DNA of 64,000 nt from assembly GCA_026122225.1 (NCBI GenBank), contig JANEZZ010000302.1, forward strand, positions 1 to 64,000. The letters are read 5' to 3'. The DNA comes from Heloderma charlesbogerti (lineage: Eukaryota; Chordata; Lepidosauria; Squamata; Helodermatidae). Below are positions 2,061 through 48,970 of this stretch, one piece after another (position 1 is the stretch's first letter; every line of letters starts with the position of its first letter). A program made the translations under genes and the position numbers. The notes under the pieces were generated by a model. The model saw only the letters and a list, made by a program, of their open reading frames with translations. It ran no database searches and was not told the origin of the DNA.

Positions 2061-2758
2061 AAACAGACAATTGACTGCAAATGGGCGGGCACGTGCCGGC
2101 GTTCTTTAATCCATATTTCCTCCAAACAGGGGGCCCCTATGGGGCAGAGCACACCCCAGTAGAGAATGAGGGTGAGTAAGGGCGAGATTATGGTAACGAG
2201 ACTAAGACGGTAAAAAAATCCAGCTAAGCCAGCACTCGTTAGTCTAAAAGATAAAGAAGATAGAAGACCCCCAGTCGATAGCCGCCGCCTTGAATGCCGT
2301 TGGCTGGAATGGCTATTGAGGCGCCCGCCGCCAACCATTCCCCTGTTATTTTTTCATTATTATTTCTTTTAGTTTTTCTTATTTTTTTTGTACCGAGGCA
2401 GGAAAAACCCTATCCGCCCCCAGGTTAAGCTTCGTCTCCCAGGGGGAGGATCACGGGGTGGGCGGGAGGGAAGGGCACAGGGGGGGCATTGGGGGGGCGA
2501 CGGGGGCTTTGCGGGGGCAACGGGCATGGGTGGGGCTATTTATGGGGGTGGGGGGCATGATATCAAATCAGTATCACATGGGGGGGGGGTGGCGCAGGCA
2601 GCGCGAGTGCCGTTCTAAGTATCCGACAGTTCCTCGTTCCGACCATGGTTTTCGGGGGGCTGAACTGATCTGAATGCTGGATCTCTGAATGCCTGAACTC
2701 TGAATGCCAGTGCATTCGGTCTCACTGAAATCCGTGGCGGAATTTTCCGCCATCCGTA
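562..2758 (+). mobile_element. Fam1 palindromic hAT-like element, copy A (anomalous centre)
   Basis: Non-autonomous DNA element. The left part (562-818) shows the Fam1 module: a GAATGGACG..CACTTAC start, then G-rich blocks reading GGGAGGCACTCCGTCC. The right end (2705-2758) is typical Fam1 3' sequence, with GCATTCGG, TCCGTGGCGGAATT and a degenerate terminus CATCCGTA. An 8-bp duplication flanks it: GTGTGAAT at 554-561 and GTGTGAAC at 2759-2766. No transposase is encoded. Remnants of the palindromic core (AGCTATACGTA, ATGGCGGCGGCC) remain at 880-975. The centre is replaced by extreme homopolymer sequence, annotated separately. Family calls rest on termini and duplication only. Confidence 0.75.
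1020..2640. other. Extreme low-complexity block, probable sequencing/assembly artefact
   Basis: About 1.6 kb made largely of homopolymer runs: G-rich 1023-1110, T-rich 1200-1480, C/A-rich 1500-1760, G-rich 1840-1890, A-rich 2020-2062, G-rich 2440-2600. It lies inside the position where other Fam1 copies carry long perfect hairpins, which stall polymerases. A short stretch of ordinary complexity (2095-2340) sits within it. Several long open frames here are composition artefacts. I infer poor base calls rather than biology, but a real purine/pyrimidine tract cannot be excluded. Confidence 0.6.
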
Positions 2759-6395: not shown

Positions 6396-7142
6396 TAGGG
6401 ATGGACGAAAGGGACTTACCTCGTCCCGCAGCTTGCTTCGCGGTGGAGGGGAGGCGCTTCGGTTCTCCCCCTGAAGTTCAGGCGAGGGGGGGGAGGCGCC
6501 CCGCCTCGCCCGGCCAAAATTCAGGCCGCAGGGGAGGTGCCCCATCCCTCGCCGGCGAAATTCAGGCCGGGGAGGGGCGCCCCGTCTACCCGGCCGCGAA
6601 AAAAGTAAAAACAAAAAAACACACACACCCGTGATAGGCTACGTAAATAGCGTTCCCTTATTTTCGCCATAGTCTACGTAAATGTTTACGTAGACTAGAT
6701 GTGCCAAAATAAAGAACACAAATGGCGGTCCCCATGGGAGCCGCCATTTGCGTACACGCTTTTTTTCCCCCCCAAAGTCAACCGTGATAGGCTACGTGAC
6801 GATTTACGTAGCCTATCCTGGCTGACTTTGGAAATCTAGCCACGATAGGCTACGTAAATCATTACGTAGCCTATCTCGGATGTGGTTTGTTTTTTTTACT
6901 TTACTTTTTTTTTTTTTGCAATGGTGGTGGCGGCAGCCAGTCGGGAGACCGGCCGCCGCCCCCAACGAAACACCACCGAACCACCACCAGGACCCGCCGC
7001 CGAGAGGGACATTTGCCGAATGTAAGTCCCATCCCGGGGGGGGCGGGGGGCCAGTGGAGAATTTCCCCAACACTTTCGGGGGGCCGAATGCGTCGGCACT
7101 CGGCCTCACGAAGATTCGTGGAGAAATTCTCCGCCAACCCTA
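6396..7142 (+). mobile_element. Fam1 palindromic hAT-like element, copy B
   Basis: Terminal TAGGGATGGACGAAAG and ..CCGCCAACCCTA. A perfect 8-bp duplication CCATCAAA flanks it (6388-6395 and 7143-7150). After a G/C-rich block of three GGGGAGGCGCC-type repeats, the core is a row of hairpins: TAGTCTACGTAAA/TTTACGTAGACTA at 6670-6700, an AAATGGCGG../..CCGCCATTTGCG stem at 6720-6755, and GATAGGCTACGT../..ACGTAGCCTATC pairs at 6786-6875. It is a shorter subfamily than copies C, D and G, sharing its 5' block with copies E and F. Confidence 0.9.
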
Positions 7143-13441: not shown

Positions 13442-13499
13442 AATGAAACTAGGGATGGGCAAATGAGCAATGTTTCAGATCATCTGGATTCGCTGAACA

Positions 13500-13665
13500 T
13501 CATAGAATCATAGGGTTGGAAGGGGTCTACAAGACCATCGAGTCCAACCCCCTGCTCAGTACAGGAAGCCTAATTTCCAGGCAGTCTCCCATCCAAGTAC
13601 TAACCAGGGCTGACCCCGCTTAGTTTCCAAGATCAGATGAGATCAAGCACATCCAGCCCTTTGCT
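13500..13665 (-). mobile_element. 5S rRNA-derived SINE (SINE3-like) with CR1 tail
   Basis: Read on the minus strand, about 85 bp (13577-13660) resemble 5S rRNA, including the internal promoter: GATCTCATCTGATCTTGG, then AAACTAAGCGGGGTCAGC (A-box region), then GGTTAGTACTTGGATGGGAG (C-box, nearly unchanged). A CR1-type 3' tail follows directly: GGGGGTTGGACTCGATGG.. and CCAACCCTATGATTCTATG, ending at 13500. A 5S promoter head fused to a LINE tail is the architecture of SINE3 elements, with the tail recruiting CR1 machinery. It could alternatively be a CR1 tail inserted next to a 5S pseudogene. Confidence 0.65.
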
Positions 13666-13955
13666 CTTACTGCTCATCTTGTGCCTGATTCCAATTTGCA
13701 TTTGTGAACACTGCTCAAATGTGTCCAAACTGAGCAGTGACCAAATGCAAGATTTGTGCAAATTTCCCATATTTGCACAAATTTTCCCCCTAGACTAAAG
13801 TGGGGCTGATTCAGTCTATAGGGAGAAATTTGCACAAATTGAGCACGAGCACGTGTCTGATATTTTGCAAACGTTTTTGGCATTTTTGCATTCAAGGCTT
13901 CAAAGAGGAGATGTTCATATATTTTGTGAGCAAAAACAAAATGTGTATACATCCC

Positions 13956-14845
13956 TAGGGATGTATGAAAGTCACTTACCTTTTTGCAGATTCTGTTTGT
14001 GGTGGGGGGGAGGCACTCCGTCCCTCCCCCCAGAATCCTAGACGGAGGGGGAGGCGATCTGGTCCTCCCCCCCAGAATCCTCAATGGCTGGCTCTGCTCC
14101 ACGGTGGCTCTGCGGAGCAGCTGGCCAGGCCAGGGCCATCCGCAGCTGGATTTCTGTCCATGGACTGGCTGGTGCAGATGCAAATGGCGGCTGCTATACC
14201 GGCTGCCATTTGCATCCAGCCAGGGAGCCGTGATAGGCTACGTAAGTCTTTATGTAGCCTATCACGTCTGGGTAAAAAAAAAAAGCATACCCAAATGGCG
14301 GCAGCTACGGCAGCTGCCATTTGCATTCCTTATTTTTTGCCATTTTAGTCTACATAAATATTTACATAGACTATTACGGTGAAAAAAAAAGGGAACGCAA
14401 ATAGCGTAGCGGGCGCTATTTGTGTTCCTTTTTTATTCGCCGTTTTAGCCTATGTAAATATTTATGTAGACTAAAATGGCGAAAAATAAGGAACGCAAAT
14501 GGCGGCCACTGTATTCGCTGCAATTTGCGTACGCCGTTTTGTTTTTTTGGTTTTTTACCTCGACGTGATAGGCTACGTAAGTCTTTACATAGCCTATCAT
14601 GTCTGGGTAAAAAAAAAAAAGACCAGACTGCAAATGGCGGCCACGGCAGCCGGTTGAAAGTCCAGCTGCCGCCGCCGAACCCACCGCTGGAGCCGCCGCC
14701 GTCCGGAACATCAGCCCCAGGTAAGTCTCCTCCCAGGGGGGATCCGCGGGGGGGGGCAGGCTGTTCCGCCATGGATTTCGGGGGGGCCAAATGCCAGTGC
14801 ATTCGGCCTCACTGAATTCCGTAGCGGAATTCTCCGCCATCCCTA
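13956..14845 (+). mobile_element. Fam1 palindromic hAT-like element, copy C
   Basis: TAGGGATGTATGAAAGTCAC start and CTCCGCCATCCCTA end. The probable duplication is TACATCCC (13948-13955) and CACATCCC (14847-14854), 7/8 with one extra A at 14846. The core is a large inverted repeat centred near 14410, with arms about 14290-14530. Stems include AATAGCG../..CGCTATT, TAGTCTACATAAATATTTACATAGACTA and AAATGGCGGC../..GCCGCCATTTG-type pairs. Relative to copy D it lacks one central hairpin module. It contains ATTTGCAT octamers. Confidence 0.85.
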
Positions 14846-14864
14846 ACACATCCCTAGGTGAAAC

Positions 14865-21519: not shown

Positions 21520-21641
21520 GTCAAAACTAGGGCTGTGCACCACCTCAGTACGAAGCCTGAATAACGAGGTGAAGCAGGCTGATTCGGGGGTGCCTCGTTG
21601 TGATACAAAGCAAATCAGACCAGCACCAAGGTGCCCTGAAC

Positions 21642-22535
21642 TAGGGATGTAAGAAAGTCACTTACCTTTCCGCAGATTATGTTGATGGTGGGGGGGGGAG
21701 GCGTTCCGTCCCTCCCCCTGGAATCCTCGACGGGGGGGGAGGCAATCCATTCCTCCCCCCCGGAATCCTCCACGGCCGGCTGTGCTCCGTGGCAGCTCCG
21801 CAGAGCAGCTGGCCAGGCCCAGCCAGGCCAGAGCCGTCTGCAGCCAGATTTCCGGCCACAGAGGGCTCTGGGGAAAAAAACAACCTGCGTACGCAAATGG
21901 CGGTGGCTACGGCTGCTGCCATTTGCGTTCCTTATTTTTGACCGTCTTAATCTACGTAAATATTTATGTAGACTATGATGACGAAAATAAAGGGGAACGC
22001 AAATAGCGTAGCGGGCACTATTTGCGTCCCTTTTTGATTCCCCGTTTTAGCCTACGTAAATCTTTACATAGGCTAAAACGGCGAATCAAAAAGGGACGCA
22101 AATAGTGCCCGCTACGCTATTTGCGTTCCCCTTTATTTTTGCCATCATAGTCTATGTAAATATTTACGTAGACTAAGATGGCCAAAAATAAGGAACGCAA
22201 ATGACGGCGGCCATAGCCGCCACCATTTGCGTACGCAGTTTTGTTTTGTTTTTTTAAACCCAGCCATGATAGGTTTACATATCTTTACGTAGCCTATCAC
22301 ATCGTTGTTGTTGTTTTTTTTACAAGACTGCAAGTGGCGGCGGCAGCCGGTCGGAAGACCAGCTGCCACCGCTGCCACTGCCGCCGCCCAGAAGATCTGC
22401 CCCAGGTAAGTCTCGTCCCAGGGGGGATCCGTGGGGGGGCGGGGGGGCAGGCCGTTCGGCGACGGAGTTCGGGAGGCTGAATGCACTGGCATTCGGCCTC
22501 ACTGAGATCCGTGGCGGAATTCTCTGACATCCCTA
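21642..22535 (+). mobile_element. Fam1 palindromic hAT-like element, copy D
   Basis: Starts TAGGGATGTAAGAAAGTCAC and ends CTCTGACATCCCTA. A perfect 8-bp duplication CCCTGAAC flanks it (21634-21641 and 22536-22543). The core (21890-22233) is a near-palindrome of about 344 bp centred near 22061. Within each arm are smaller palindromes: ACGCAAATGGCGG../..GCCATTTGCG, CTACGTAAATATTTATGTAG, ACGCAAATAGCG../..CTATTTGCGT, and the central TTTTAGCCTACGTAAA/TTTACATAGGCTAAAA. This is the clearest example of the family's architecture. Confidence 0.92.
21890..22233. repeat. 344-bp nested palindrome (copy D core)
   Basis: Left and right arms are near-exact reverse complements about 22061. Seven or so sub-hairpins of 25-45 bp lie symmetrically, so either strand could fold into one long stem or a string of hairpins. 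Confidence 0.85.
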
Positions 22536-24045
22536 CCCTGAACTGTAATGGCTCCTCCACGAAGCGCCTCATCTGCCTCATATATTAAGAGCTCTTCTTA
22601 TGTCTTCTGAGCAGCCTAGACAGGCTGTCTCCAAAATGTATCAACTTCTGAAAGATCACGCAGAGGTACAGGTGGAAGAGGAAGGAGGGGGGAAGGCGAG
22701 AGGATGGGTAGGCACCAAATGTATCAATCTGAGAGAGATCTGGCCACTGGAAGAGATGGGGGAATGGGAGAGGAGCGGAGAGAGGAGAAGGGAGTGAGCT
22801 TTGCTGTGAGTCAGCCTCCCTCTGCTCATTGTGAGAGAGGTGGTGTTACTGAAGAGGAGAGGACTGTCTGAACATTATTTGGCTAAAGCAGTGGTCTCCA
22901 AAGTGGGGTGCATGCATCTTGGGGGGGGGAGTACAAGATGATCCATTGGGGCGCGTGAGCCACCTGAGATTGAGCAGCCTCCCGTTTCCCTGGCATGCTG
23001 CTGTTGTGTGCAATGATGGTGGCAGCAGCAGCAGCAGGATGGGACAGGAGCTGAGAGGGAAGCTCCATGGCATTTCTCTCTCTGCTCCAGTCCTACCCGG
23101 TGAGAGCAACTGCCCCAGTCTCTGCCAGGCATGGCAGAAGAAGCCTTAACTCTTCCCACTCTCCTTTGGCAGAATGCAGCCAAGAAGAAAGAGCATGCTA
23201 TAGGAACTGCATAAGACAAGGATCCATGAAATCAAAAAGGGATTCTCATGAGTTCATATGATTTTTAAAGGGGAGACCCACAAAACCACCATCCCATCAC
23301 AGAGCACATATGCTTCCATGGACTGAAAAAGAAAAATCATGGAACTGCCACTTGCAGGCACAGCCACAACCCCCAAACAGGGAAAATTGTCTCTCCCTGT
23401 TCCCCGGAACAAGACTGCTGCTAGCGCACATCCGGAGGGCCTAGGAGCTGGCAGTGGCAGCAGCCCGCCCTCATTGGAGGAGTCATCCTCCAACCGGGTG
23501 CCCCCCCCTTCCAAGGAAGGGAGCGAGTGCAGTTGGAGGGAGATGCCTGCTCTCGTGGCTGTCGGTGGTTGGCGGGCTGCAGCAGGAAGCATTCTCCCCA
23601 GCAGCGTGTTCCTCGGCAGTGCGCTCCCCAGCAGCACCAGCAGCAGCTGCAGCACCTTCCCCAGTGTCACCAGCAGCAGTGGCAGTGACAGCTCGCCTGG
23701 TGGCAGAGTCCCCTCCCCCTGGAACAAGGGCTCGGGTAGGGAGCTGGGGGCTGGGTGGCATGTTGGGGGGGAGCGGGATTTGGCTTCGTAGTAGGCCAAG
23801 GCAGGTTGGGGGGGGTCAGCCCGAGCTGAAGTGGGCCCATCTCAGAATCCCCGAAGCAGTTTCCAAGTCAAATCGGGGGGCAGGGGTGTCCATGCACAGC
23901 CCTAGTTGAAACATATCAGGAATGCAACAGTTATAAAGGATGGAATGGAACTGGGGTGGTGGTGGAAAAATGTTAGCTGTATGCGTCACAGCTGAAATAA
24001 CAAACAGGGGCCCCCATAAGGCCAGTAAGTCCATTGTCTATAATT

Positions 24046-24771
24046 TAGGGATGTCAGAGAATTTCTCCACGAATCTTGGGGAGGCTGAATGCCAGTGCAT
24101 TCGGCCCCCCGAAATTGGTGGAGAAACGGTCTGCCCCCCCGCCCCCCCCCCCCGGGATGGGACTTACCTTGCTCGAATGTCCCTGGCGGCAGCGGCGGCG
24201 GCTCCGGCAGCCGTGTGGCGGCGGCAGCCGGTCTTCCAACTGGCTGCCGCCACTGCCATTTCCAAGTAAAACAAACAAACAAACAAATGTGATAGGCTAC
24301 GTAAAGATTTACGTAGCCTATCACGGCTAGATTTTTAAAAACACCGTGATAGGCTACGTAAATGTTTACGTAGCCTATCACGGCTGACTTTGAAAAAAAA
24401 AAAAGCGCGTATGCAAATGGCGGCGCCCATGGGCACCCCATTTGCATTCCTTATTTGGGCATGTGTAGTCTATGTAAAGATTTACAGCGAAAATAAGGGC
24501 AACACAAATAGCGTAAATACATTTACATAGCCTATCCCAGTTGACTGCAGGGACGCAAATGGCGGCGGCTACGGCCGCCGCCATTTGCGTCCTGGCAGGA
24601 GATGACGTTTCGCAGCCAGAGGGATGAGGCGCCTCCCCCCCGGCCAGAATTTCAGCGGGGAGGGATGGGGCGCCTCCTCCCCGGCCAGAATTTCGGGGGG
24701 AGGGACGGAGCACCTCCCCCCCACCGCGAAGCAAGCGTTGGGATCAGGTAAGGGACTTTCATCCATCCCTA
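24046..24771 (-). mobile_element. Fam1 palindromic hAT-like element, copy E
   Basis: Minus orientation. The + strand starts TAGGGATGTCAGAGAATTTC and ends CTTTCATCCATCCCTA. Flanks CTATAATT (24038-24045) and CAATAATT (24772-24779) match 7/8. It belongs to the same short subfamily as copy B. Paired GATAGGCTACGTAAA/TTTACGTAGCCTATC hairpins lie at 24291-24323 and 24347-24381, and an AATGGCGGCGGC../..GCCGCCGCCATT stem at 24557-24592. Confidence 0.88.
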
Positions 24772-28098: not shown

Positions 28099-29024
28099 TA
28101 GGGATGTATGACAATTTTGTTTTTGCTTGCAAAACATGGGAGTGTGCCCCGTTCAAAGCTCTGAACATGAGCGCAAGCACACGTCCACCAAAAAGATTTG
28201 TAAATTGCTGAACACGTGCTTGTGTTCATCCTGTTCCCGATTCCCAGCTCGATTTGCACACATTTCCTAATTTGTGCCAAGTGCCTCCATAGACTGAATG
28301 AGCCGGCTTTAGTCTATGGAGAAACAGTGCGCACGTTAGGAAATATGCACAAATTTGGGGAAATGTGTGCAAATTAGGGTTGTTGTCCCTTGGTGGGAAG
28401 CCCTGTTAATGTTTTGTTCAATGGAATCTCACTGGCTGCCTGACCCTGCCGTGCACATGACGTGAGCCACCATGGGACCCAGAGATGCCCAGCGAGAGCG
28501 TGTGGTTGGTTTGTTTTTATTACTGAGCTGTGATTTGCACAAAATAAGGGGAAATACGTATTTATGGAAATAGCAATTTGTGCACAATGGTGGCCGTAAA
28601 TAGCACAATTTGTGCTACATTGCAGGCGCAAATGGCTACTTACACATGCAATTTTGCACAAATTACGCTGTTTATGGACACAATTTTGCACAAATTACAA
28701 TTTGCACAATTTTTTAAAAAAGTGGAAAACCATGAGCTTGCCCAGCTTGTTGTGTGATGAGTTGGATTAGCTCGAGGATCTGCAAACTGGAGTCTGGGGG
28801 GCCAAGCTGGTAAAAACTCGCTAAGCTGTACCCCCAAACTGGATTCCTCTAACATCCCTAGTGCAAATCTCCTGTTCGATTGCTGCTTGATTTGGGAACT
28901 TTTCCCATTCATGCAGAATGAGCAACGATCGCAAACGTGAAGAGGAATCAGGCACAAGACAAGCAGCAGACCAATGTTCGGAGAATCCTAGTGGCCTCTA
29001 GCAGTGCTCGTTTGCCCATTCCTA
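28099..29024 (+). mobile_element. Fam2 hAT-like element with nested Fam6
   Basis: Starts TAGGGATGTATGACAATTTTG, ends GCTCGTTTGCCCATTCCTA. Flanks GTGGAGCA (28091-28098) and GTGCAGAA (29025-29032) match 6/8. Own sequence is 28099-28374 and 28869-29024, with the typical TTTGCTTGCAAAACATG block and many 'TTTGCACA' words. It is interrupted by a younger element at 28375-28860. Confidence 0.7.
28375..28860 (+). mobile_element. Fam6 hAT-like element nested in Fam2
   Basis: Starts TAGGGTTGTTGTCC, ends CTCTAACATCCCTA. A perfect 8-bp duplication GTGCAAAT is present at 28367-28374 and 28861-28868. The core has hairpin-forming phrases ATTTGCACAAAATA..TTTGTGCACAATGG..AATTTGTGC and GGTGGCCGTAAATAG. No ORF of note. 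Confidence 0.85.
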
Positions 29025-29387: not shown

Positions 29388-29861
29388 TAGGGATGGACAG
29401 ACTCACCCCTGTCTGCACTCACCGGGTGCTCGCCAGACTGCTGCCACCTCTGCTCTGCACAAGCCCCTGGACGGCCTGGTGAGCAACCAGCAAGCTCTGC
29501 GTGGCCACCTTGTCCCCTAGAGAGCCACCATTTTGCATAAAAATGGCAGTTTGTTATTCTGTGTAAAAGGTCTTTTACACAAACAGCAGCCATAAATCCA
29601 CCATTTAGGCAAGATTAGAGGCATGAATGGACCAGTCGATCACCATTCGTATAAAATACCTTTTATGCAGAATAATGAGCCACCATTTTTATGCAACATG
29701 GCACCATTTTATGCAACATTGGACCGAGCGGCTGTGCAGAGCTTGCCAGGTACTTGCTGAGCCATTCAGAAGCTTGCACAGTTAGCAGGAACAGGCAGCC
29801 AGGCCAAGCAGGGGGGAGTCCATTGGACTCCACCCCTGGTTGGGTGCCCACAACATCCCTA
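29388..29861 (+). mobile_element. Fam5 hAT-like element
   Basis: Starts TAGGGATGGACAGACTCACC, ends CCCACAACATCCCTA. Flanks GCTCAGGG (29380-29387) and GCTCAGAG (29862-29869) match 7/8. The core contains an inverted arrangement of GAGCCACCATTTT..TGC and GTAAAAGGTCTTTTACAC (29560-29580). Related to 35066-35639 at its 5' end. Confidence 0.8.
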
Positions 29862-30029
29862 GCTCAGAGGTATTTGTTTCCAAAGTGGTGCTCAGGCCCA
29901 GTGCCTCTTCAGTCAGCACCACTGGTTTTATAGCTTCTCTGTCCATGTTCAGGGCCATACTGGACTTCAGGGTCACGACACTGGTGTTAGTGGATATTGT
30001 ACCCAGAAAAAAACATGGGGCAGTCTCAG

Positions 30030-30240
30030 CTCAAACCACTGCTCAGCCACAAAGCTCAAGCTCAAAACACTGCTCAGCCACAAAGCTCAGCTCAAAACAC
30101 TGCTCAACCACAAAGCTCAGCTCAAAACACAGCTCAGCCACAAAGCTCAGCTCAAAACACTGCTCAGCCACAAAGCTCAGCTCAAAACACTGCTCAGCCA
30201 CAAAGCTCAGCTCAAAACACTGCTCAGCCACAAAGCTCAC
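30030..30240 (+). repeat. 30-bp minisatellite, about 7 units
   Basis: Tandem units of exactly 30 bp (CTCAAAACACTGCTCAGCCA + CAAAGCTCAG). The first unit is followed by one extra base. Unit variants are few: TGCTCAA for TGCTCAG in one and ACAGCTC for ACTGCTC in another. Because 30 is divisible by three, open repetitive frames run through it on both strands. No spacer structure, so not a CRISPR array. Confidence 0.97.
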
Positions 30241-30903: not shown

Positions 30904-31675
30904 TAGGGATGTACGAAAGTCACTTACCTGAACCCGAAAGTTGATTCGCGGTGGGGGGGAGGTGCTCCGTCCCTCCCCCTGAAATTCTGGCCGGGGGGGA
31001 GGTGCCCCATCCCTCCCCCCCAAAATTCTGGCCGGGGGGAAGCGCCACGTCCCTCCCCCCCGAAATTCTGCCTGGTGGGGAGGCACCCCGTCCCTCCCGC
31101 CGCAAATCCTGTCCTGCCGGGATGCAAATGGCGGTGGCTGTAGCCGCTGCCGTTTGCGTCCCTGCAGTCAGCCATGATAGGCTACGTAAATGTTTACGTA
31201 GCCTATCACGGCTGAGTGAAAAAAAAAAAAACGCGCGTACACAAATGGCGGTGCCCATGGGCGCCGCCATTTGCATTCCTTATTTTGGCACGTGTAGTCT
31301 ACGTAAACATTTACGTAGACTATGGTGAAAATAAGGGGAACGCTATTTGCGTTCCCCTTATTTTTGCCGTAGTCTACGTAAATGTTTACGTAGACTACAC
31401 GTGCCAAAATAAGGAACACACATAGCGGCGCCCATGGGCGCCGCTATTTGCATATGCGTGGTTTGTTTGTTTGTTTTCACTCAGCCGTGATAGGCTACGT
31501 AAACATTTACGTAGCCTATCACGGTGTTTTTTAAAAATCTAGCCATGATAGGCTACGTAAATCTTTACGTAGGGATGTCGGAGAATTTCTCCACGAATCT
31601 CCGGGAGGCCGAATGCCAACGCATTCGGCCCCCCAAAATTGGTGGGGAAATTCTCTGACACCCCCCTCACCCCGG
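30904..31675 (+). mobile_element. Fam1 palindromic element, rearranged copy F
   Basis: Normal left end (TAGGGATGTACGAAAGTCAC). The core is a palindrome of about 350 bp (31173-31523), centred near 31347 on GGGGAACGC/GCGTTCCCC. Stems include GATAGGCTACGTAAATG/TTTACGTAGCCTATC and GTAGTCTACGTAAA../..TTTACGTAGACTAC. At 31570 the expected TAGCCTATC switches to TAGGGATGTCGGAGAATTTC, the left end of an oppositely oriented Fam1 copy, which then runs out near 31675. No right target duplication is found, so this is a rearranged or chimeric copy. Confidence 0.75.
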
Positions 31676-32762: not shown

Positions 32763-33698
32763 TAGGGATGTACGAAAGTCACTTACCTGTTCGTGGATTG
32801 TGTTGATGGGGGGGGGAGGCGTTCCATCCCTCCCCCAAGAATCCTCACTGTGGGGGGAGGCGATCCGTTCCTCCCCCCTGGAATCCTCCATGGCTGGCTG
32901 TGCTCCGCAGCAGCTCCGTGGAGCAGCTGGCCAGGCCTGGCCAGGCCAGAGCCGTCCACAGCCGGATTTCCGGCCGCGGAGGGCTCCGGGTTAAAAAAAA
33001 AAAAAAAACGCTTACGCAAATGGCGGCACCTACAGCCGCCATCATTTGCGCTCCTTATTTTTGCTCTCTTAATCTACGTAAATATTTACATAGACTATGA
33101 TGGCGAGAATCAAGGGGAATGCAAATAGCATAGTGGGCGCTATCTGCATCCCCTTTTGATTCGCCGTTTTAGCCTACATAAATATTTACGTAGGCTAAAA
33201 CAGGGGATCAAAAAGGGATGCAAATAGCGCCCGCTACACTATTTGCGTTCCCCTTGATTTTTGCTGTCATAGTCTACGTAAATATTTACGTAGATTAAGA
33301 GGGCAAAAATAAGGAACGCAAATGGCGGCGGCCGTAGTCGCCACCATTTGCGTACGTGGTTTTGTTTTGTTTTTTAACCCATCCAGCCATGATAGGCTAT
33401 GTAAATCTTTATGTAGCCTATCACGTCTTTCTTTCTTTTTCTTTCTTTCTTTCTTTCTTTTTTTTACCAGAGTGGAAATGGCTGTGGTGGCAGCCGGTTG
33501 GAAGACTGGCCGCTGCTGCCACCGGAGCCACCGCCACCCAGAAGATCCGCCCCAGGTGATTCTCGTCCCAGGGGGGATCCGTGGGGGGGTGGGGGGATCC
33601 GTGGGGGGGGCAAGCCGTTCCGCCACGGAGTTCGGGGGGCTGAATGCACTGACATTTGGCCTCACCGTGATCCGTGGCGGAATTCTCTGCCATCCCTA
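32763..33698 (+). mobile_element. Fam1 palindromic hAT-like element, copy G (in CR1)
   Basis: Starts TAGGGATGTACGAAAGTCAC, ends TCTCTGCCATCCCTA. A perfect duplication GGCCTAAC lies at 32755-32762 and 33699-33706. Removing the element and one duplicate restores the CR1 reading at this point, which fixes both boundaries to the base and the duplication length to 8 bp. The core palindrome is centred near 33183 (TTAGCCTACATAAATATTTACGTAGGCTAA), with arms about 33010-33360. A (CTTT)n tract at 33426-33465 is specific to this copy. The element is 936 bp. Confidence 0.95.
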
Positions 33699-35881: not shown

Positions 35882-37130
35882 TAGGGATGCATGAGTAGGG
35901 ATGGCAGAGAATTCCGCCACGGATTTCAGTGAGGCCGAATGCACTGGCATTTGGCCCCCTGAAAACCATGGCAGAATGGCCTGCCACCCCCCCCACAGGG
36001 ACGAAGCTTACCTGGGGCAGATGTTCCGGATGGTGGCAGCAGCAGCTGGTCTTCCGACTGGCTGCCACCACCGCCATTTGTAGTCTGGTCTGTTTTTTTT
36101 TACATTGACGTGATAGGCTACGTAAAGACTTACGTAGCCTATCACATCTGGGTAGGTAAAAAAAAAAGTGTACGCAAATGGCGGCGGCCGCCATTGTGTT
36201 CCTTATTTTTCGCCATCTTAGTCTACGTAAATATTTACATAGACTATTATGGCAAAAAGAAAGGGGAATGCAAATAGCGCCCACTACACTATTTGCGTTC
36301 CCCTTTATTTTTGCTGTAATAGTCTACATAAATATTTACATAGACTAAGATGGCAAAAAATAAGGAACGCAAATGGCGGCCGCCGTAGCCGCCGCCATTT
36401 CCATACACATTTTGTTTTTGTTTTTACCTGCCCAGGCGTGATAGGCTATGTAAATACTTAAGTAGAGCTAAATACAGGGCCGCAAATGGCGGCGGCTATG
36501 GCAGCCGCCATTTGCATCCCTGCAGGCCGCCCAGAGGCTGGATGTCCAGCTGCGGGCAGCCGGAGCCAGCCGGCGGCTCCGCAGCTTGGCCGTGGAGCGG
36601 AGCTGGCCGGGCAGGATTCCGGGGGGGAGGGACGGAGCACCTTCCCCCTGTCGAGGATTCCGGGGGGAGGGACAGAGCGCCTCCCCCCCCAGCGGAAACA
36701 GAACGGAATGGAAGGTAAGTGTTCCATCCATCCCATGCATGAGAACTTTGGTTTTGCTTGCAAAACATGCAACCATGCCCTGTTTGAAGCCCCAAATGTG
36801 ATTGTGAGCGCATTTGCATGTTTGCAAAAATATTTGCCAGACATGAGCTTGCATGGAGTTCAACTCTCCTGGTTTGAATTTGTGCAAATTTCTAAATTTG
36901 TGTAAATTTCCCCTGTAGACTGAGTCAGCCCCGTTTTAGCCTATGAAGGAAAGTTGCACAAAATTTGGGCAAATGTGCACAACTTTCACATTTGATCACT
37001 GCTTGATTTGCACAAGTTTCCTGTTTACAGAAAGCGAGCAGCGTTCACAGGAATAGGGCATGACACGAGTGGAAAGACGATGTCCAGAGAATCCTAGAGA
37101 TCTCAAACAGTGCTCATTCGCTCATCCCTT
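35882..37130 (+). mobile_element. Fam2 hAT-like element with Fam1 copy H near its 5' end
   Basis: Starts TAGGGATGCATGAG, resumes after the insertion at 36744 with AACTTTGGTTTTGCTTGC, AAAACATGC, and ends GCTCATTCGCTCATCCCTT. Flanks GCCTCACC (35874-35881) and ACCTCACT (37131-37138) match 6/8. Fam1 copy H is inserted only 14 bp from the Fam2 terminus. Confidence 0.7.
35896..36735 (-). mobile_element. Fam1 palindromic hAT-like element, copy H
   Basis: Minus orientation. The + strand starts TAGGGATGGCAGAGAATTCC and ends GTGTTCCATCCATCCCA. A perfect duplication TGCATGAG lies at 35888-35895 and 36736-36743. Hairpins: GATAGGCTACGTAAAGAC/TTACGTAGCCTATC (36111-36143), TAGTCTACGTAAATATTTACATAGACTA (36217-36246), an AATAGCG hairpin, and AAATGGCGGC../..GCCGCCATTT (36373-36402). 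Confidence 0.9.
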
Positions 37131-37283: not shown

Positions 37284-37555
37284 TAGGGATGGCGGAGAAT
37301 TCTGCCATGGATTCCAGTGAGGCCGGATTCTGTAGAATTCTGCAGCAGCCTGTCCACAGCCGGAAGTCCAGCTGCAGATGGCCCTGGCTGCCTGCTCCGC
37401 GGAGCCGCCGTGGAGCAGAGCCGGCTGGGCAGGATCCCGGGGGGGAGGACCAGATAGCCTCCCCCCCCATTGAGGATTCCGGGGGGAGGGATGGAGCGCC
37501 TCCCCCCTACAGCGGATGCCCTGACCGGAACAGGTAAGGGATTCGTACATTCCTA
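37284..37555 (-). mobile_element. Fam1 deletion derivative, copy I
   Basis: Only 272 bp: TAGGGATGGCGGAGAATTC at one end and GATTCGTACATTCCTA at the other. A perfect duplication CTCTTGGC lies at 37276-37283 and 37556-37563. It keeps both terminal blocks and the GGGGGGAGG..CGCCTCC repeats but has no palindromic core. The intact duplication shows it either inserted in this short form or lost the core afterwards. Confidence 0.9.
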
Positions 37556-40213: not shown

Positions 40214-43200
40214 TGGATCATTGCCTTGTTGTGGCGAAGGGGCTTGCATAACTCAGTGAAGCCATAAGCTATGCCGTGCAGGGCCACCCAAGACGGACAG
40301 GTCATGGCGGAGAGTTCTGACAAAATGTGGTCCACTGGAGAAGGAAATGGCAACCCACTCCAGTATTCTTGCCAAGAAAACCCCATGGAATGTATCACAA
40401 GGCTAAAAGAGATGACGCCGGAAGATGAGCCCCTCAGGTCGGAAGGTGTCCAATATACTACTGGGGAAGAGCAGAGGGAATTTCCAAGTAGCGCCAGAAA
40501 GAGTGAAGCAGCTGGGCCAAAGCCAAAAGGACACTCAGCTGTGGATGTGTCTGGTGGTGAAAAGAACATCCGATGCTGTAAAGAACAATATTGTTTAGGA
40601 ACCTGGAATGTCAGATCAATGAATCAAGGTAAGCTGGAGGTGGTCAGACATGAGATGGCAAGATTGAACATCGACATCTTGGGAATCAGTGAACTAAAAT
40701 GGACAGGCATGGGCAAATTTAATTCAGGTGACCATCATATCTACTACTGTGGGCAAGAATCCCTTAGAAGAAATGGAGTAGCACTCATAGTCAACAAAAG
40801 GGTGGGAAAAGCAGTACTGGGGTACAATCTTAAAAACGATAGAATGATCTCAGTACGAATCCAAGGCAAACCATTCAACATCACAGTAATTCAAGTCTAT
40901 GCCCCAACCACTGATGCCGAAGAAGCTGAGGTTGATCGGTTCTATGAAGTCCTACAACACCTTCTAGAACTAACACCAAAAAAAGATGTCCTCTTCATCA
41001 TGGGGGATTGGAATGCTAAAGTAGGAAGTCAAGAAATCACCGGGATAGCAGGCAGGCATGGCCTTGGTGTACAAAATGAAGCAGGACAAAAGCTAATAGA
41101 GTTTTGCAAAGAGAACACGCTGATCATAGCAAACACTGTTTTCCAACAGCACAAGAGGCGACTCTACACATGGACATCACCAGATGGTCAATATCGAAAT
41201 CAGATTGATTATGTCCTTTGCAGCCAAAGATGGAGAAGCTCCATACAGTCAGTCAAAACAAGACCTGGAGCTGACTGTGGCTCAGATCATGAACTTCTTG
41301 TTGCAAACGTTCGGCTTAAATTGAAGAACGTAGGGAAAACCACTAAACCATTGAGGTATGACCTAAATCATATCCCTTATGAATATACAGTGGAGGTGAG
41401 GAATAGATTTCAGGGATTAGACCTGATAGACAGAGTGCCTGAGGAACTATGGACGGAGGTTCGTAACATTGTTCAGGAGGCAGCAACTCAATCCGTCCCA
41501 AAGAAAAAGAAATGCAAGAAAGGCAAGTGGCTGTCTGATGAGGCTTTTCAAGTAGCTGAGGAAAGAAGGGAAGCGAAAAGCAAGGGAGAAAGGGGAAGAT
41601 ATATCCAACTGAATGCAGAGTTCCAGAGAATAGCAAGGAGAGACAAGAAGGCCTTCTTAAATGAACAATGCAAAGAAATCGAGGAAAACAACAGAATGGG
41701 AAAGACTAGAGATCTCTTCAAGAAAATTGGAGATCTCAAGGGAACGTTTTGTGCAAAGACAGGCATGATAAAGGACAAAGAAGGCAGGGACCTAACAGAA
41801 GCAGATGAGATTAAGAAGAGGTGGCAAGAATACACAGAAGAACTATACAGGAAAGATCTTCATGTCCCTGATAGCCATGATAGTGCGGTCACTGAACTTG
41901 AGCCAGACATCCTAGAAAGTGAAGTCAAGTGGGCCTTAGGAAGCATTAGTAACAACAAAGCTAGTGGAGATGACAGTATTCCAGTGGAGCTATTTAAAAT
42001 CCTCAAAGATGATGCTGTTAAAGTGCTGCATTCAATATGCCAACAAATTTGGAACACTCAACAATGGCCGCAAGACTGGAAAAGGTCAGTTTACATTCCA
42101 ATTCCAAAGAAGGGCAACGCCAAAGTGTGTTCGAACTACCGCACAATTGCGCTCATTTCACATGCCAGCAAGGTGATGCTCAAAATCCTACAAGCTAGGC
42201 TTCAGCAGTATGCAAACCGAGAACTACCGGAAGTACAAGCTGGGTTTCAAAGAGGCAGAGGAACTAGAGATCAAATCGCCAACATTCGCTGCATCATGGA
42301 GAAAGCAAGAGAATTCCAGAAAAACATCTATTTCTGCTTCATTGACTACGCTAAAGCCTTTGATTGTGTGGATCACAACAAACTGTGGCAAATTCTGAAA
42401 GAGATGGGAGTATCAGACCACCTTACCTGTCTCCTGAGAAACCTGTACGAGGGTCAAGAAGCAACAGTAAGAACCAGACATGGAACAACCAAGTGGTTCA
42501 AAATTGGGAAAGGAGCACGACAAGGCTGCATATTGTCACCCTGCTTATTTAACTTATATGCAGAGTACATCATGAGAAATGCCGGGTTGGATGAATCAGA
42601 GGTCAGAATTAAGATTGCCAGGAGAATTATCAACAACCTCCGATATGCAGACGATACCACCCTAATGGCAGAAAGCGAAGAGGATCTAAAGAGCCTCTTG
42701 TTGAGGGTGAAAGAGGAGAGTGCAAAAGCTGGTTTGAAACTCAACATTAAAAAAACTAAGATCATGGCATCTGGCCCTATCACTTCCTGGCATATAGAAG
42801 GGGAAGAAATGGAAGCAGTGACAGATTTTACTTTCTTGGGCTCCAAGATCACCGCAGATGGTGACTGTAGCCATGAAATTAAAAGACGCTTGCTCCTTGG
42901 GAGGAAAGCTATGGCAAACCTAGACAGCATAGTGAGAAGCAGAGACAACACCTTGCCGACAAAGGTCCGTCTAGTCAAAGCTATGGTTTTCCCAGTAGTA
43001 ATGTATGGCTGTGAGAGCTGGACTATAAGGAAGGCTGAGCACCAAAGAATTGATGCTTTCGAACTGTGGTGCTGTAGAAGACTCTTACGAGTCCCCTGTA
43101 CTGCAAGGAGGTCAAATCAGTCAATCCTAAAGGAAGTCAACCCTGAGTGCTCATTGGAAGGACAGATCCTGAAGCTGAAGCTCAAATATTTTGGCCACCT

Positions 43201-43420
43201 AATGCAAAAAGAAAACTCTCTGGAAAAGACCCTGATGCTGGGAAAGACTGAAGGCGAAAGGAGAAGGGGACAGCAGAGGATGAGATGGTTAGATAGCATC
43301 ACTGATGCAATGAATATGAACTTGAGCACGCTCCGGGAGAGAGTGCAGGACAGGAAAGCCTGGCGTGCTATGGTCCATGGGGTCACGAAGAGTCGGACAC
43401 GACTGAACGACAACAACAAC
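40214..43420 (+). mobile_element. Full-length BovB (RTE) LINE
   Basis: A 3.2-kb non-LTR retrotransposon. It starts TGGATCATTGCCTTGTTGTG, contains the diagnostic GAAGGAAATGGCAACCCACT and ATTCTTGCC, and ends CATGGGGTCACGAAGAGTCG, GACACGACTGAACGA(CAA)n. Target duplications AAAGCACTGTCA (40202-40213) and AAAGCAATGTCA (43421-43432) match 11/12, confirming a single full-length insertion. With its ORF open throughout, it must be young, and BovB is the hallmark LINE of squamates. It could supply enzyme for itself and for SINEs that share its tail. Confidence 0.96.
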
Positions 43421-43489
43421 AAAGCAATGTCACCACATCTGAAATTAATGAGGCACTTTGGCTTAAAACCAAGACATCCCAGATTCTAA
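40271..43489 (+). CDS. BovB endonuclease-reverse transcriptase (intact ORF)
   Basis: 1072-residue polyprotein of the RTE/BovB clade that nicks target DNA and reverse-transcribes its own RNA at the nick. The apurinic-like endonuclease spans roughly residues 105-345: TWNVRSM at about 111, GDWNAKVG at 245, GSDHE at 337. The reverse transcriptase spans roughly 540-830: KASGDDSIPVELF, FIDYAKAFDCVD near 690, GARQGCILSPCLFNLY, and the catalytic YADD at about 792. A C-terminal region WLDSITDAMNMNLSTLRERV follows. All key residues are present and no stop or frameshift interrupts it. The first in-frame ATG after the stop at 40265 is used; a later Met near residue 12 or 39 could be the true start. The frame has no stop before the element's 3' end, so the last 22 or so residues are encoded by flanking DNA. 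Confidence 0.95.
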   Translation: MPCRATQDGQVMAESSDKMWSTGEGNGNPLQYSCQENPMECITRLKEMTPEDEPLRSEGVQYTTGEEQREFPSSARKSEAAGPKPKGHSAVDVSGGEKNIRCCKEQYCLGTWNVRSMNQGKLEVVRHEMARLNIDILGISELKWTGMGKFNSGDHHIYYCGQESLRRNGVALIVNKRVGKAVLGYNLKNDRMISVRIQGKPFNITVIQVYAPTTDAEEAEVDRFYEVLQHLLELTPKKDVLFIMGDWNAKVGSQEITGIAGRHGLGVQNEAGQKLIEFCKENTLIIANTVFQQHKRRLYTWTSPDGQYRNQIDYVLCSQRWRSSIQSVKTRPGADCGSDHELLVANVRLKLKNVGKTTKPLRYDLNHIPYEYTVEVRNRFQGLDLIDRVPEELWTEVRNIVQEAATQSVPKKKKCKKGKWLSDEAFQVAEERREAKSKGERGRYIQLNAEFQRIARRDKKAFLNEQCKEIEENNRMGKTRDLFKKIGDLKGTFCAKTGMIKDKEGRDLTEADEIKKRWQEYTEELYRKDLHVPDSHDSAVTELEPDILESEVKWALGSISNNKASGDDSIPVELFKILKDDAVKVLHSICQQIWNTQQWPQDWKRSVYIPIPKKGNAKVCSNYRTIALISHASKVMLKILQARLQQYANRELPEVQAGFQRGRGTRDQIANIRCIMEKAREFQKNIYFCFIDYAKAFDCVDHNKLWQILKEMGVSDHLTCLLRNLYEGQEATVRTRHGTTKWFKIGKGARQGCILSPCLFNLYAEYIMRNAGLDESEVRIKIARRIINNLRYADDTTLMAESEEDLKSLLLRVKEESAKAGLKLNIKKTKIMASGPITSWHIEGEEMEAVTDFTFLGSKITADGDCSHEIKRRLLLGRKAMANLDSIVRSRDNTLPTKVRLVKAMVFPVVMYGCESWTIRKAEHQRIDAFELWCCRRLLRVPCTARRSNQSILKEVNPECSLEGQILKLKLKYFGHLMQKENSLEKTLMLGKTEGERRRGQQRMRWLDSITDAMNMNLSTLRERVQDRKAWRAMVHGVTKSRTRLNDNNNKAMSPHLKLMRHFGLKPRHPRF

Positions 43490-45600: not shown

Positions 45601-46996
45601 GATCAATATTGTAAAGTCATGATGGTATGCTCCGAGATGAAGCCCAAAGCCCCTGTTCTCCCTGACTCAAGCCCCACAGAAAGAGCTTGGAGATTAAGAG
45701 ATCCTGCCCAAGGCTCCCTGGGTTTCCCCTGCCCTATTCGGCCTGTTAGGTTGGGAGGAAAGGTTGCTGGGGGAGGAGGGAGAGAAGCCCCCCCCCCACG
45801 GAGAACCCATCTGTTACATCCCCACGTCTCGCTCGGTCTAGCTCCTTCTAAGTTGAAACATCTTCCAGTGTATTCAAGTTTGTTAGAGGAAGCAAGAACA
45901 GCTACAACAACAACAAAAAAGTTGTAAACTCTGAAGAAAGAGATTTGTTCAAAGTCTTAAAGACTGTGGCAAAATTAAAGGAACAAAGACAGAGCAATGT
46001 CTGGGTCTGTGTAAGCTTATCTCTGCCAGTCTATTGAGAGCAGAGCTAAGGGGGGGTTGCCCGGCCCCACCAGAAGATGCCTGTGAGGACCTAATAGAAA
46101 CAGTAAGATTTGCAAAAGAATTGCCCAAGTTAAAGCATCACAGCTGGAAAGCTGAGCAGACCTTGCTCTTATCTGTCAAAGAATCTAAAAGAGGTGTAAG
46201 GTTACACCTTCCACTCTTAAACTAAGGAAAAGACAGACAGCCTTTGCTAACATCCCATTTTTTATTGCCCAAAGCTTTTTTGGATCCATTATTGTTTAGA
46301 TTTTTGAGAGGCACTCTGCACATAGATTAGAACTTTAGACTGTTAGAGATTTGCCATGAACAGTACTGTGAGGCTTGTCATAGCCATAAACTCCGGTTGT
46401 TGTAAATTGTGTGTTTGTTTGTGATCAGCTCAGTGCACAGTTTGATTTGTAACTTCAACACTCAGATAAAAAGCTGTATTTCCAAGGCTTTGAGAGATTC
46501 ACAGACTACAAAGGAAGCAGCCTTCAAAAAGTTCAAAGAGAAACTACGAAAGTTAGTTTCCGTTTAGAAAAAAAGGGGGCCAATAAATTGTATTAAAAAG
46601 TGAGAGAGGAAAATTCCCCCTCCCCTTCTCCTGTGGCATCTCTAAGCCCAGCTGTGCTTCTAAAGCCTGAGAAAGTTCCTGCCCCACGTGTTCCAGCTCT
46701 TTCTCAAAATCTGAACTGTCTGGACACTCTAAATGCTCAGAGGCAAGCTTGTCACTCTGTCAAAATTCATAAAGTGTGGAGTTGCCGATGCAAAAATGGT
46801 GGCTTAAAACTTTTTGCATATATAAAAATGCCCTTCCCTTGATCTTAATGGGCCCTGGCTGTGTAGCCAGAAGAACAGTATGATTGCCAGATCTGCTCCA
46901 CCATGCCCTGCAATGAAAAAAAAAAATGTTTTTCAGTCACGCTGTTAGATTTCAATGGTGTAAAGCAGAAAAGGCAAGGAAAAAAAAAAGAGAAAG

Positions 46997-47692
46997 TTGC
47001 AGAAGACTGATGGGGCAGCAGCAATGTCTCTGCCCCAGTTGATGGAGATTGCTTATAAGGTGTTTGTGAATCGTGAGAAAGTAGAGAAGAAGGAAACAGA
47101 TAAGAAGGGCAGACAGAACGCAGCTTTGATTGCAATGGCAATCACAGGGCAAGTCCCTGATTGGGCAGATAAAGGTTTAAAGAAAGATTTTGGGAATCAG
47201 AGAAAGCTGCATTTGGGAAGAGATGAATGCGCTTACTATAAAGAGAAGGGACATTGGCGAAAAGACTGCCCAAAGCGAAAGGGGAAGAAGAGGGGGGCGA
47301 TGGTGACCATAAAAGAGAAAGAGGACCAGCCGTGGGTGTCCTTGCTTCAGTATTCAAATGACCTTCTTCTGGCCACCCAGACAGAGGACTCATGTGCTAA
47401 AGCTACTATCTCCCTCTTGCAAGAATTAAACTTGAAAGGCTATAAAGTGTCAAGAGAAAAGGCTCAGATTTGCCAGACCCATGTCACCTTCTTGGGCTAC
47501 CTGATTCGAAAGGGAACCAGAGACCTGAGCACTGCTCGGTTGGACGTCATACAGAAGACACAGAGGCCTAAAGACCCTCGAGAGTTGCGAGCCTTCCTTG
47601 GGCTCACCGGGTTTTGTACAATGTGGATACCTGATTATGGAGGAAAAGCAAAGCCCCTGTATGAAGCTTTGCCAAAAAATATCATCCACTGA
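46997..47692 (+). pseudogene. ERV gag-pol deletion fusion (nucleocapsid to RT)
   Basis: A 231-residue open frame made by an internal deletion. Residues about 15-60 resemble the end of capsid (charged NREKVEKKETDKKGRQ). Residues about 77-91 are a zinc knuckle, CAYYKEKGHWRKDC, in which the second metal-binding cysteine is replaced by tyrosine. The frame then jumps, without protease or the RT N terminus, into RT from YSNDLLLA at about 118, where the conserved Y-x-D-D catalytic motif reads YSND. RT connection sequence follows (FLGYLIRKG, LRAFLGLTGFC, WIPDYG). It lacks intact zinc binding and RT catalysis. The open frame looks fortuitous or retained only for packaging. Confidence 0.85.
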
Positions 47693-48380
47693 AAATGGAC
47701 AAATAAAATGGAAAAGGCTTTTCTTAAGGTGAAGCAAGCCTTGGTGTCGCCACCTGCTCTGGCCTTACCAGATCCCAACAAACCGTACCGGCTCTGTGTA
47801 CATGAAAATAAAGGAGTGGCATCAAGGGTTTTGACCCAAAGGACAGGTCCTTCCTAGAGACTTGTAGGATACTACTCGAAGACTCTGGATCCAACCGCAA
47901 AGAGATGGCCTGCTTGCTTAAGGGCCGTGGCAGCAATTGTGCTTTTATCCGTCACGCCAGTCACGCTATGAGATCTTCCCTGCTTTCAAGCCCAGGCCTC
48001 ATCCTGCCACCTTGCTCCCTAAGCCAGATCTCAATTGTTATGACTGTTTAAAAATTTTGAGTCAGGTGACTCTGATCAGGCCTGACCTCACTGATTCCTT
48101 GTTACCAAAGCCAAACCTTAAGGTGTTTGTAGATACACAAGATGTGCAGTAGTTACTCTTGAAAAAGCGTATGGAAAGAGTGCCAATCCCGAAAAAAATA
48201 AGAGGCAATGCTTTGGCAGATAAGACTGCAAAAGAAGCCGCACACATGAGAAGTGAGGAGGTGCATTATGAAAGAGCCCTAATCCCATATTTGAGTACAG
48301 ATTTGGTTCCAATCTACTCTCCAGCTGAGCATGAGAGAGCTCTTGAATACAAGGCAAAGCAAACTAAAGATGGATGGTAG
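47693..48380 (+). pseudogene. ERV pol remnant (RT connection / RNase H)
   Basis: Out-of-frame continuation of pol. KMEKAFLKVKQALVSPPALAL, DPNKPYRLCV and the tract through 47930 correspond to the RT connection domain. GNALADKTAKEAA at about 48206-48245 is the conserved C-terminal helix of RNase H. Multiple stops and missing segments. Confidence 0.75.
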
Positions 48381-48398
48381 ATAGTCCCAAGAGGCAAA

Positions 48399-48970
48399 GT
48401 GTTCATATCCAGGCCTCTTCTGAGCTTTATAGTGAGAGACTTGCACCAGGCTACACATCTAAGAAAAATTGCAATAGAAGATCTACTCGTGAGACATGGT
48501 GTAGCCCCTAAATTAAAATGGCCACAGGCCTTGCCAATCTCCTTAACTCGAATACAGTGCACCCCCAGGGGAAGTATTAAACTGACACCGTTTAAAATGT
48601 TATATGGGCGCCCACCTCAGATGTTACCTATGGCTGATAGCTTAAATATAAACTTTAAAGTAAGGGCTTTAAAGATCCATGAATATGTTACTGCCTTGCA
48701 GTCTGTTTTGTCTTGTCTTCACAGGTTCGCAGCACCATACCAATCCTTGCCTTTAGATGCTCCAGTGCATAATTTCAGTCCTGGTAATTAGGTGCTGATC
48801 CAGTCCTGGAAAGATGAACCACTTACTGAGAAATGAAAGGGTCCATTCCAGGTTCTACTCACCACTCACACGGCTATAAAAGTTGCTAGAAAAAAGAAGT
48901 GCATCCATCACACCCACATAAAAGCATCACCTGCACCAGAGAGGGTCACACCGGAAGCTGACCCACCTAA
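48399..48970 (+). pseudogene. ERV pol remnant (integrase)
   Basis: The frame at 48399-48791 carries PRGSIKLTPFKMLYGRPPQM, the conserved region just after the integrase catalytic core. Further on, KGPFQVLLTTHTAIKV at about 48837-48885 is the GPY/F-type C-terminal module, in another frame. The DDE catalytic core is largely missing. Integrase would insert proviral DNA; this one cannot. Confidence 0.78.

What the first reader, a model, noticed from the sequence alone, without database searches (positions are those of the whole stretch)
21642..22535. Fam1: a hAT-like element whose core is a palindrome made of palindromes
Copy D is flanked by a perfect CCCTGAAC duplication. Its 344-bp core folds symmetrically about 22061, and each arm is itself a row of 25-45 bp hairpins (TACGTA-centred and GCCGCCATTTGCG-type). 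The arrangement recurs in copies B, C, E, F, G and H. Ordinary MITEs have simple TIRs or one fold-back; a modular hairpin string inside a hAT-type element is unusual and may be undescribed. TIR and duplication are read directly; the superfamily follows from the known hAT 8-bp rule.
Basis: partly seen in the sequence, partly recalled or inferred. Interest (0 to 1): 0.9.

Follow-up and report, generated by a model that had tools for sequence, protein, structure and literature searches.

The report
Lizard-type jumping gene made of hairpins
A short, non-coding cut-and-paste jumping element in what looks like a lizard or snake genome is built largely from DNA hairpins, and its copies suggest how one palindrome may grow out of another.

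Summary
The element is real. Copy D (21642-22535) has 13-bp inverted ends, a perfect 8-bp duplication (CCCTGAAC) and a 372-bp core palindrome centred at 22061/22062. Eight copies lie in the window. Five have perfect 8-bp duplications (B, D, G, H, I), E has 7 of 8, C 7 of 8 with a one-base offset, and F is rearranged. Joining H's flanks gives an empty site that matches another repeat copy. 32 of the window's 53 strong hairpins lie in the copies (9.3% of its length).

Best reading: a non-autonomous hAT-type transposon of a squamate. The left end carries AAGT-C-ACTT centred on base 18 (4 of 8 copies), the layout of the transposase-binding site reported for the Hermes left end (centre 19). Core variants C, H, D and G differ by about 100-bp steps. 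D and G carry an inverted second M hairpin around a T hairpin, so a palindrome probably grew by inverted duplication at a hairpin loop. Resident copies mostly decay like ordinary DNA.

Not settled: whether Repbase/Dfam holds the family, where its transposase is, and which way the 100-bp steps ran. Outward splice-donor-like AGGTAAGT at both ends is noted; the binding-site reading covers the left one.

The parts
21634..21641 (.). left 8-bp target duplication CCCTGAAC of copy D
22536..22543 (.). right 8-bp target duplication CCCTGAAC of copy D
21642..21654 (+). left terminal inverted repeat TAGGGATGTAAGA
   Evidence: I11, 13 nt, 92%
22523..22535 (-). right terminal inverted repeat
   Evidence: I11
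21655..21663 (.). AAGT-C-ACTT at element bases 14-22, laid out like the Hermes left-end STR1/STR2 pair
   Evidence: Hermes motif from PMC10368747
21660..21667 (-). AGGTAAGT reading outward (splice-donor-like; overlaps the AAGT-C-ACTT site)
21691..21775 (+). two 41-bp G-rich tandem repeats near the left end
21876..22247 (.). 372-bp core palindrome, arms 185 nt, 90% complementary
   Evidence: I1
21891..21928 (.). hairpin module N, left copy
   Evidence: (D5)
21930..21993 (.). hairpin module T', left copy
   Evidence: I4
21989..22035 (+). hairpin module M, first copy (loop GTAGCGGGC)
   Evidence: (I8)
22030..22093 (.). hairpin module T'', centre of the large palindrome
22088..22134 (-). hairpin module M, second copy, inverted (loop GCCCGCTAC)
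   Evidence: (I9)
22130..22193 (.). hairpin module T', right copy
   Evidence: I3
22195..22232 (.). hairpin module N, right copy
   Evidence: (I7)
22267..22299 (.). outer T hairpin, damaged in D (not picked up by the 5-mismatch T scan)
   Evidence: sequence; homologues C618, G635, H582
22330..22379 (+). N-like G+C-rich hairpin
   Evidence: fold
22404..22411 (+). AGGTAAGT reading outward, inside a block that looks like an inverted copy of the left subterminal block
   Evidence: the block comparison is by eye
22450..22535 (.). right-end hairpin module whose inner arm resembles an eroded terminus
   Evidence: resemblance read by eye
6396..7142 (+). copy B, duplication CCATCAAA perfect
13956..14845 (+). 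copy C, hybrid T''/T' hairpin; duplication TACATCCC / CACATCCC with one extra base
24046..24771 (-). copy E, duplication CTATAATT/CAATAATT
30904..31664 (+). copy F, right end inverted and rearranged, no duplication recognised
32763..33698 (+). copy G, duplication GGCCTAAC perfect
35896..36735 (-). copy H, duplication TGCATGAG perfect, inserted 14 bp inside another TAGGGATG element; empty-site match at 28099-28159
37284..37555 (-). copy I, without the hairpin core, duplication CTCTTGGC perfect
2700..2758 (+). fragment A, right end only

Best explanation
Fam1 is a non-autonomous, cut-and-paste hAT-type transposon of a squamate reptile, moved in trans by a transposase encoded elsewhere. Shown: copies sit between 8-bp duplications, and one (H) interrupts another repeat whose undisturbed form is present. 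Inferred: a BED-type transposase binds the left end at an AAGT-C-ACTT pair 14-22 bases from the tip, as Hermes does, with asymmetric ends. Palindromes grew stepwise: synthesis or repair turned back at the loop of a small hairpin and copied the strand already made, giving a larger palindrome centred on that hairpin, which then spread by transposition. Recombination between the resulting 100-bp units may also add or remove units. The hairpins are most likely passengers.
For: 8-bp duplications: 5 of 8 copies perfect (B, D, G, I; H), 7 of 8 recognisable (E; C). 172 end pairs were tested and a perfect match is expected in about 7e-5 of random pairs. Empty site: H's joined flanks match 28099-28159 across the junction at 80% over 61 bp, and two other places at 72-73%; the other 6 of 7 joined sites gave none. 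Left end: AAGT-C-ACTT at bases 14-22 in 4 of 8 copies (C, D, F, G), one half in B and E, and by eye in H's true left tip. The pattern occurs 8 times in the window, 4 of them these copies. Growth at a hairpin: the D and G core is N-T'-M-T''-inverted M-T'-N, and M's asymmetric loop is reversed in the second copy. C's second T hairpin is a hybrid: left half nearest D's T'' halves (0.092 and 0.105), right half nearest H's T' half (0.106); a tree puts the right half in the N-T' group (100/100) and the left half outside it, near the T'' halves of D and G. Little upkeep: D against G, 186 arm pairs, 31 with one change and 4 with a pair-preserving double change; in T centres CpG intact in 32 of 52 and other sites changed in 9 of 364.
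Against: No transposase or autonomous copy seen. The full hAT target rule nTnnnnAn is met by none of the 5 perfect duplications. The order of steps is open: C and H could each be a 100-bp deletion from a D/G-type core. Tree support is mostly low: 2 of 17 inner branches starred, 11 open; C's left half is not inside the D/G T'' fork (87/78) but beside it. D against H gives 4 pair-preserving double changes to 14 single ones on 75 comparable pairs, a higher share than D against G; D against C gives 0 to 22 on 86. In 25 of 26 T hairpins (one cut short was dropped) stems pair slightly better than under whole-arm permutation (73.5% against 67.9%, reached by 1 of 1000) and doubly changed cells are raised (40 against 24.9; 7 of 1000), though pairs with any double change are not (9 against 10.3; 886 of 1000).
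Confidence: 0.67

Rival explanations
1. Mobile bidirectional promoter: the CpG-rich hairpin core starts transcripts both ways, and outward splice donors near both ends join them to host exons.
For: AGGTAAGT occurs 11 times in the window, 9 of them in the copies, all 9 reading outward (6 left, 3 right); CpG observed/expected is 0.77-1.03 in the seven copies with a core (0.51 in I) against 0.22 in the rest. N hairpins carry ATGGCGGC on both strands, which I recall as YY1-like. From the ATG-like codon to the right donor C, D, G and H share a frame (D has GTG, C a stop); B and E use another.
Against: The left AGGTAAGT overlaps the AAGT-C-ACTT pair, so transposase binding can explain it. Left and right blocks look like inverted copies by eye, so it may be one event. 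A protein search with one outward frame of F scored 0 of 49 candidates. CpGs decay much faster than other sites, as in methylated DNA. No transcript data were available.
Confidence: 0.07
2. The hairpin array is selected for mobility, for example by extruding cruciforms or stalling forks so that copies amplify during replication.
For: Seven of 8 copies keep an array; energies far below shuffles; T, T' and T'' differ from each other by paired bases (10 of 26 centres flanked TAGG/CCTA, 7 TAGT/ACTA, 2 TAGC/GCTA) and doubly changed cells in T stems are raised.
Against: Copy I lacks the array and has a perfect duplication, though it may have lost the core after insertion. Stem pairs break freely between D and G.
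Confidence: 0.13
3. The hairpins arose by nested insertion of tiny palindromic transposons into one another.
For: The right end is itself a hairpin with an eroded terminus-like inner arm (by eye); C and H sit inside other TAGGGATG elements.
Against: No T centre at up to 5 mismatches lies outside the copies in this window (26 inside, 0 outside). The inverted second M is explained by one inverted duplication. Duplications around single modules were not searched for systematically.
Confidence: 0.07
4. Hairpins serve at the RNA level, as microRNA or small RNA sources.
For: Made1 MITEs gave hsa-mir-548 (PMC1784062, start of abstract in the listing).
Against: No Rfam family reached its gathering score in the copies (the one hit in the window is a 5S-like stretch at 13556-13672). 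Little stem maintenance between D and G.
Confidence: 0.05

Closest known systems
hAT superfamily, Hermes-type ends (PMC10368747: sections 7 and 8 read, other passages seen)
   Same: 8-bp duplications; short inverted ends; inverted AAG(T/C) pair near the left tip
   Different: no transposase; TAGGG tips; full nTnnnnAn target rule not met; the right tip has no AAG(T/C) in the first 30 bases, whereas Hermes has one in its right TIR
hAT MITEs such as those of BuT2 (PMC3942097, passages seen) and Mar (PMC3517528, start of abstract in the listing)
   Same: short, non-coding, TIRs and 8-bp duplications
   Different: BuT2 MITEs are described as internal deletions of the autonomous element, and MITEs as AT-rich inside; here the inside is a string of hairpins at 52-56% G+C (copies B-H)
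Foldback-like elements, e.g. Galileo (PMC4168063, passages seen)
   Same: large inverted repeats and structure that varies between copies
   Different: Galileo is of the P superfamily with long TIRs; here TIRs are 13 bp and the large palindrome is internal
Palindromic MITE-like clusters of Anopheles gambiae (PMC3212995, passages seen)
   Same: six clusters are palindromic repeats
   Different: no hierarchical hairpin modules in the passages seen
Bacterial BIME/REP arrays (recalled)
   Same: mosaics of small palindromes
   Different: bacterial, other mobility; no relation implied

Membership tests
hAT superfamily | 8-bp target duplication | tested here: met
   5 of 8 perfect, 7 of 8 recognisable
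hAT superfamily | short TIR of the (C/T)A(A/G)NG type (consensus recalled) | tested here: met
   TAGGGATG at both tips of D, 13 nt at 92%. Single-base departures at one tip in B, I and H; F's right tip is lost
hAT superfamily | nTnnnnAn target preference (stated for Hermes in PMC10368747) | tested here: inconclusive
   5 perfect duplications in element orientation: A at base 7 in B, D, G, I; T at base 2 in H; both in none (read)
hAT superfamily | subterminal AAG(T/C) sites, paired near the left tip as in Hermes | tested here: met
   perfect pair in 4 of 8 left ends; no AAG(T/C) in any of the 8 right-end 30-mers scanned, of which F's is not a true tip. A likeness of layout; binding not tested
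hAT superfamily | hAT transposase (own or in trans) | not testable with these tools
   genome search unanswered 10 times; only 7 ORFs of the window scanned with Pfam, none hAT
MITE | short, non-coding, many copies sharing ends | tested here: met
   8 copies of 272-936 bp in 64 kb. Non-coding rests on the ORF list and no domain search of the copies' own frames was completed
Foldback-like elements | very long terminal inverted repeats reaching the tips | tested here: not met
   tips pair for 13 nt; the large palindrome is internal

The most novel reading that the evidence does not exclude
Fam1 is a mobile bidirectional promoter and first-exon cassette: a CpG-island-like palindromic core that fires both ways, with consensus splice donors facing outward at both ends, so that each insertion can graft new first exons onto neighbouring genes.
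Probability: 0.06. Interest if true: 0.75.

Novelty: new variant of a known kind. Interest (0 to 1): 0.36.

Why it matters
Palindromic non-autonomous transposons are known, but how palindromes grow in them is seldom visible. Here one family offers cores that differ by single steps of about 100 bp, including a hybrid hairpin, so the order of steps and the role of hairpin loops as turning points can be tested with all genome copies. The left end also offers a test of whether Hermes-like asymmetric end binding extends to vertebrate elements with TAGGG tips.

Tried and rejected
Upkeep of stems by selection: not supported for resident copies, since D and G differ mostly by single stem changes (31 single, 4 pair-preserving double; on pairs without CpG 13 and 1); the T-stem permutation test leaves room for some paired history. 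Coding first exon at the right end: frames looked at in 6 copies; C, D, G and H agree, B and E do not, and no rate test was made. Relatives elsewhere: T-hairpin patterns gave 0 in viral contigs and 0 in genome contigs, collections not expected to hold reptile DNA; a protein search with one outward frame of F scored 0 of 49 candidates. Print: five module strings searched in the open-access library gave one paper, on a bacterium; searches for hAT palindromes, fold-back hAT or squamate MITEs gave nothing that I recognised as this family in the rows listed (20 of 64, 8 of 8, 20 of 20, 20 of 196, 4 of 4, 12 of 14). Searches were for background. Rfam: no match at gathering score in the copies. Deletion origin of C and H: kept open.

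Full report
Observation. Copy D is as described: TAGGGATG at both tips, CCCTGAAC on both sides and a core palindrome of two 185-nt arms, 90% complementary, two bases apart. It measures 372 bp, 21876-22247. Each arm is a row of smaller hairpins.

Copies. A self-search finds the family at eight places, plus one right-end fragment at 2700-2758. Testing every pair of near-perfect ends 60-3000 bases apart (172 pairs) gave perfect 8-bp duplications for B, D, G and I and 7 of 8 for E; a perfect match is expected in about 7 of 100,000 random pairs. Two other elements in that list, 28375-28860 (perfect) and 29388-29861 (7 of 8), show no match to D. H's left tip is mutated; it ends at 36735 with a perfect TGCATGAG on both sides. 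C has TACATCCC and, after one extra base, CACATCCC. F's right end is inverted and no duplication was recognised.

Insertion test. I joined the flanks of seven copies and searched the window for the undisturbed site. For H the joined flanks match 28099-28159 across the junction (80% over 61 bp) and two weaker places (72-73%). The other six gave no such match. H therefore probably entered another TAGGGATG repeat.

Host. The near-intact BovB-like retrotransposon frame at 40268-43489 matches best a Podarcis protein at 80% identity over 93% of the query; Varanus, Zootoca, Anolis and cattle proteins are among the 120 of 778 hits listed, with some filed under bacteria. A squamate is likely; the species is unknown.

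Hairpins. 32 of 53 strong hairpins of the window lie in the copies, which make up 5,962 of 64,000 bases. Energies of the copies against 30 shuffles each, as z: B -13.2, C -24.2, D -28.3, E -16.7, F -32.4, G -33.6, H -30.1, I -3.0. Four module kinds recur: N (ACGCAAATGGCGGC with its complement), M (GGGGAACGCAAATAGCG with its complement), T (GATAGGCTACGTA) and its relatives T' and T''. T-type centres at up to 5 mismatches: 26 in the copies, none outside. The right end folds as a hairpin too.

Grammar. The cores of D and G read N-T'-M-T''-inverted M-T'-N, C N-T'-M-hybrid-N, H N-T'-M-T'-N, and F N-T'-short M-T'-N between outer T hairpins; B and E have N, T and T' hairpins but no such symmetric core. 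The loop of M is asymmetric, and in D and G the second M has it reversed, so it is an inverted copy. In C the second T hairpin has a T'' left half (0.092 and 0.105 from D's two T'' halves) and a T' right half (0.106 from H). A tree of 20 of the 24 half-units (F's four left out) puts C's right half in the N-T' group (100/100) and its left half beside the D/G T'' fork (87/78), but is weak: 2 of 17 inner branches starred. Either a C-like core gave D/G by inverted duplication at the T loop, or C and H are 100-bp deletions of D/G. In both cases the D/G palindrome needs an inverted duplication centred on a hairpin.

Decay. On 186 arm pairs of D compared with G, 141 are paired and unchanged, 31 have one change, 4 have a double change that keeps the pair, 5 have two changes and are unpaired in G (4 of them also in D), 3 are mismatched and unchanged in both, and 2 are gaps. 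D against H: 75 comparable pairs, 14 single and 4 pair-preserving double changes; D against C: 86, 22 and 0. In 26 T centres, CpG survives in 32 of 52 places while other sites differ in 9 of 364 (centres were picked at up to 5 mismatches, which lowers both rates). That is mostly ordinary decay. Against this, 25 of the 26 T hairpins pair in 73.5% of cells against 67.9% when whole arms are swapped (1 of 1000 as high) and have 40 doubly changed cells against 24.9 (7 of 1000); pairs with any double change are not raised (9 against 10.3; 886 of 1000). I read this as the module kinds T, T' and T'' having each been copied as whole palindromes.

Mechanism at the ends. The Hermes transposase BED domain is reported to bind AAG(T/C), and two such sites form an imperfect palindrome with its central base at 19 of the left end, arranged differently from the right end (PMC10368747, sections 7 and 8 read). 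Fam1 has AAGT-C-ACTT at bases 14-22, centre 18, in C, D, F and G and half of it in B and E; I has neither half, and H, scanned with a tip cut short, shows ACTT by eye once its true end is known. The 8 right-end 30-mers scanned have none. The pattern occurs 8 times in the window, four of them these tips. This is a likeness of layout; binding was not tested.

Splice-donor-like sites. AGGTAAGT appears 11 times in the window, 9 in the copies and all 9 reading outward (6 left: B, C, D, F, G, H; 3 right: C, D, E). The left one overlaps the AAGT-C-ACTT pair and so has another explanation. The right one looks like an inverted copy of the same block, by eye. Seven copies have CpG observed/expected of 0.77-1.03 (I 0.51), the rest of the window 0.22. 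I keep the mobile-promoter reading as a low-probability case.

Verdict. A real non-autonomous hAT-type family with an unusual hierarchical hairpin core; a new variant of a known kind on present evidence, with the caveat that repeat libraries were not available. After rechecking I lowered confidence from 0.68 to 0.67, because the D-H comparison and the place of C's left half in the tree weaken the decay and stepwise arguments slightly.

Noticed in passing
window 40268-43489: Open frame of 1073 aa of a BovB-like retrotransposon (endonuclease and reverse transcriptase domains), 80% identical to a Podarcis protein; suggests recent activity.
   Followed up: partly
window 46964-49431: Remains of an endogenous retrovirus: a reverse transcriptase match below Pfam's cut-off and an envelope (TLV_coat) match above it in separate pieces; a third piece had none.
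   Followed up: no
window 13450-14864, 28099-28860, 29388-29861, 35882-37130: Other TAGGGATG-ended candidate elements, two of them hosting Fam1 copies; their tips printed lack the AAGT-N-ACTT pair.
   Followed up: partly
window 13556-13672: 5S rRNA-like stretch on the minus strand within a candidate TAGGGATG element (Rfam 44.8 bits); perhaps a SINE head or captured 5S.
   Followed up: no
window 30025-30239: 30-bp tandem repeat, 7.1 copies, 96% alike, with open frames through it.
   Followed up: no
window 2669-2758: Solo right end of Fam1 (2700-2758) overlapping 15-bp tandem units (2669-2708).
   Followed up: no
proteins P0013, P0015, P0041: BovB-like proteins filed under Staphylococcus aureus and Sinisalibacter, probably animal DNA contamination.
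   Followed up: no
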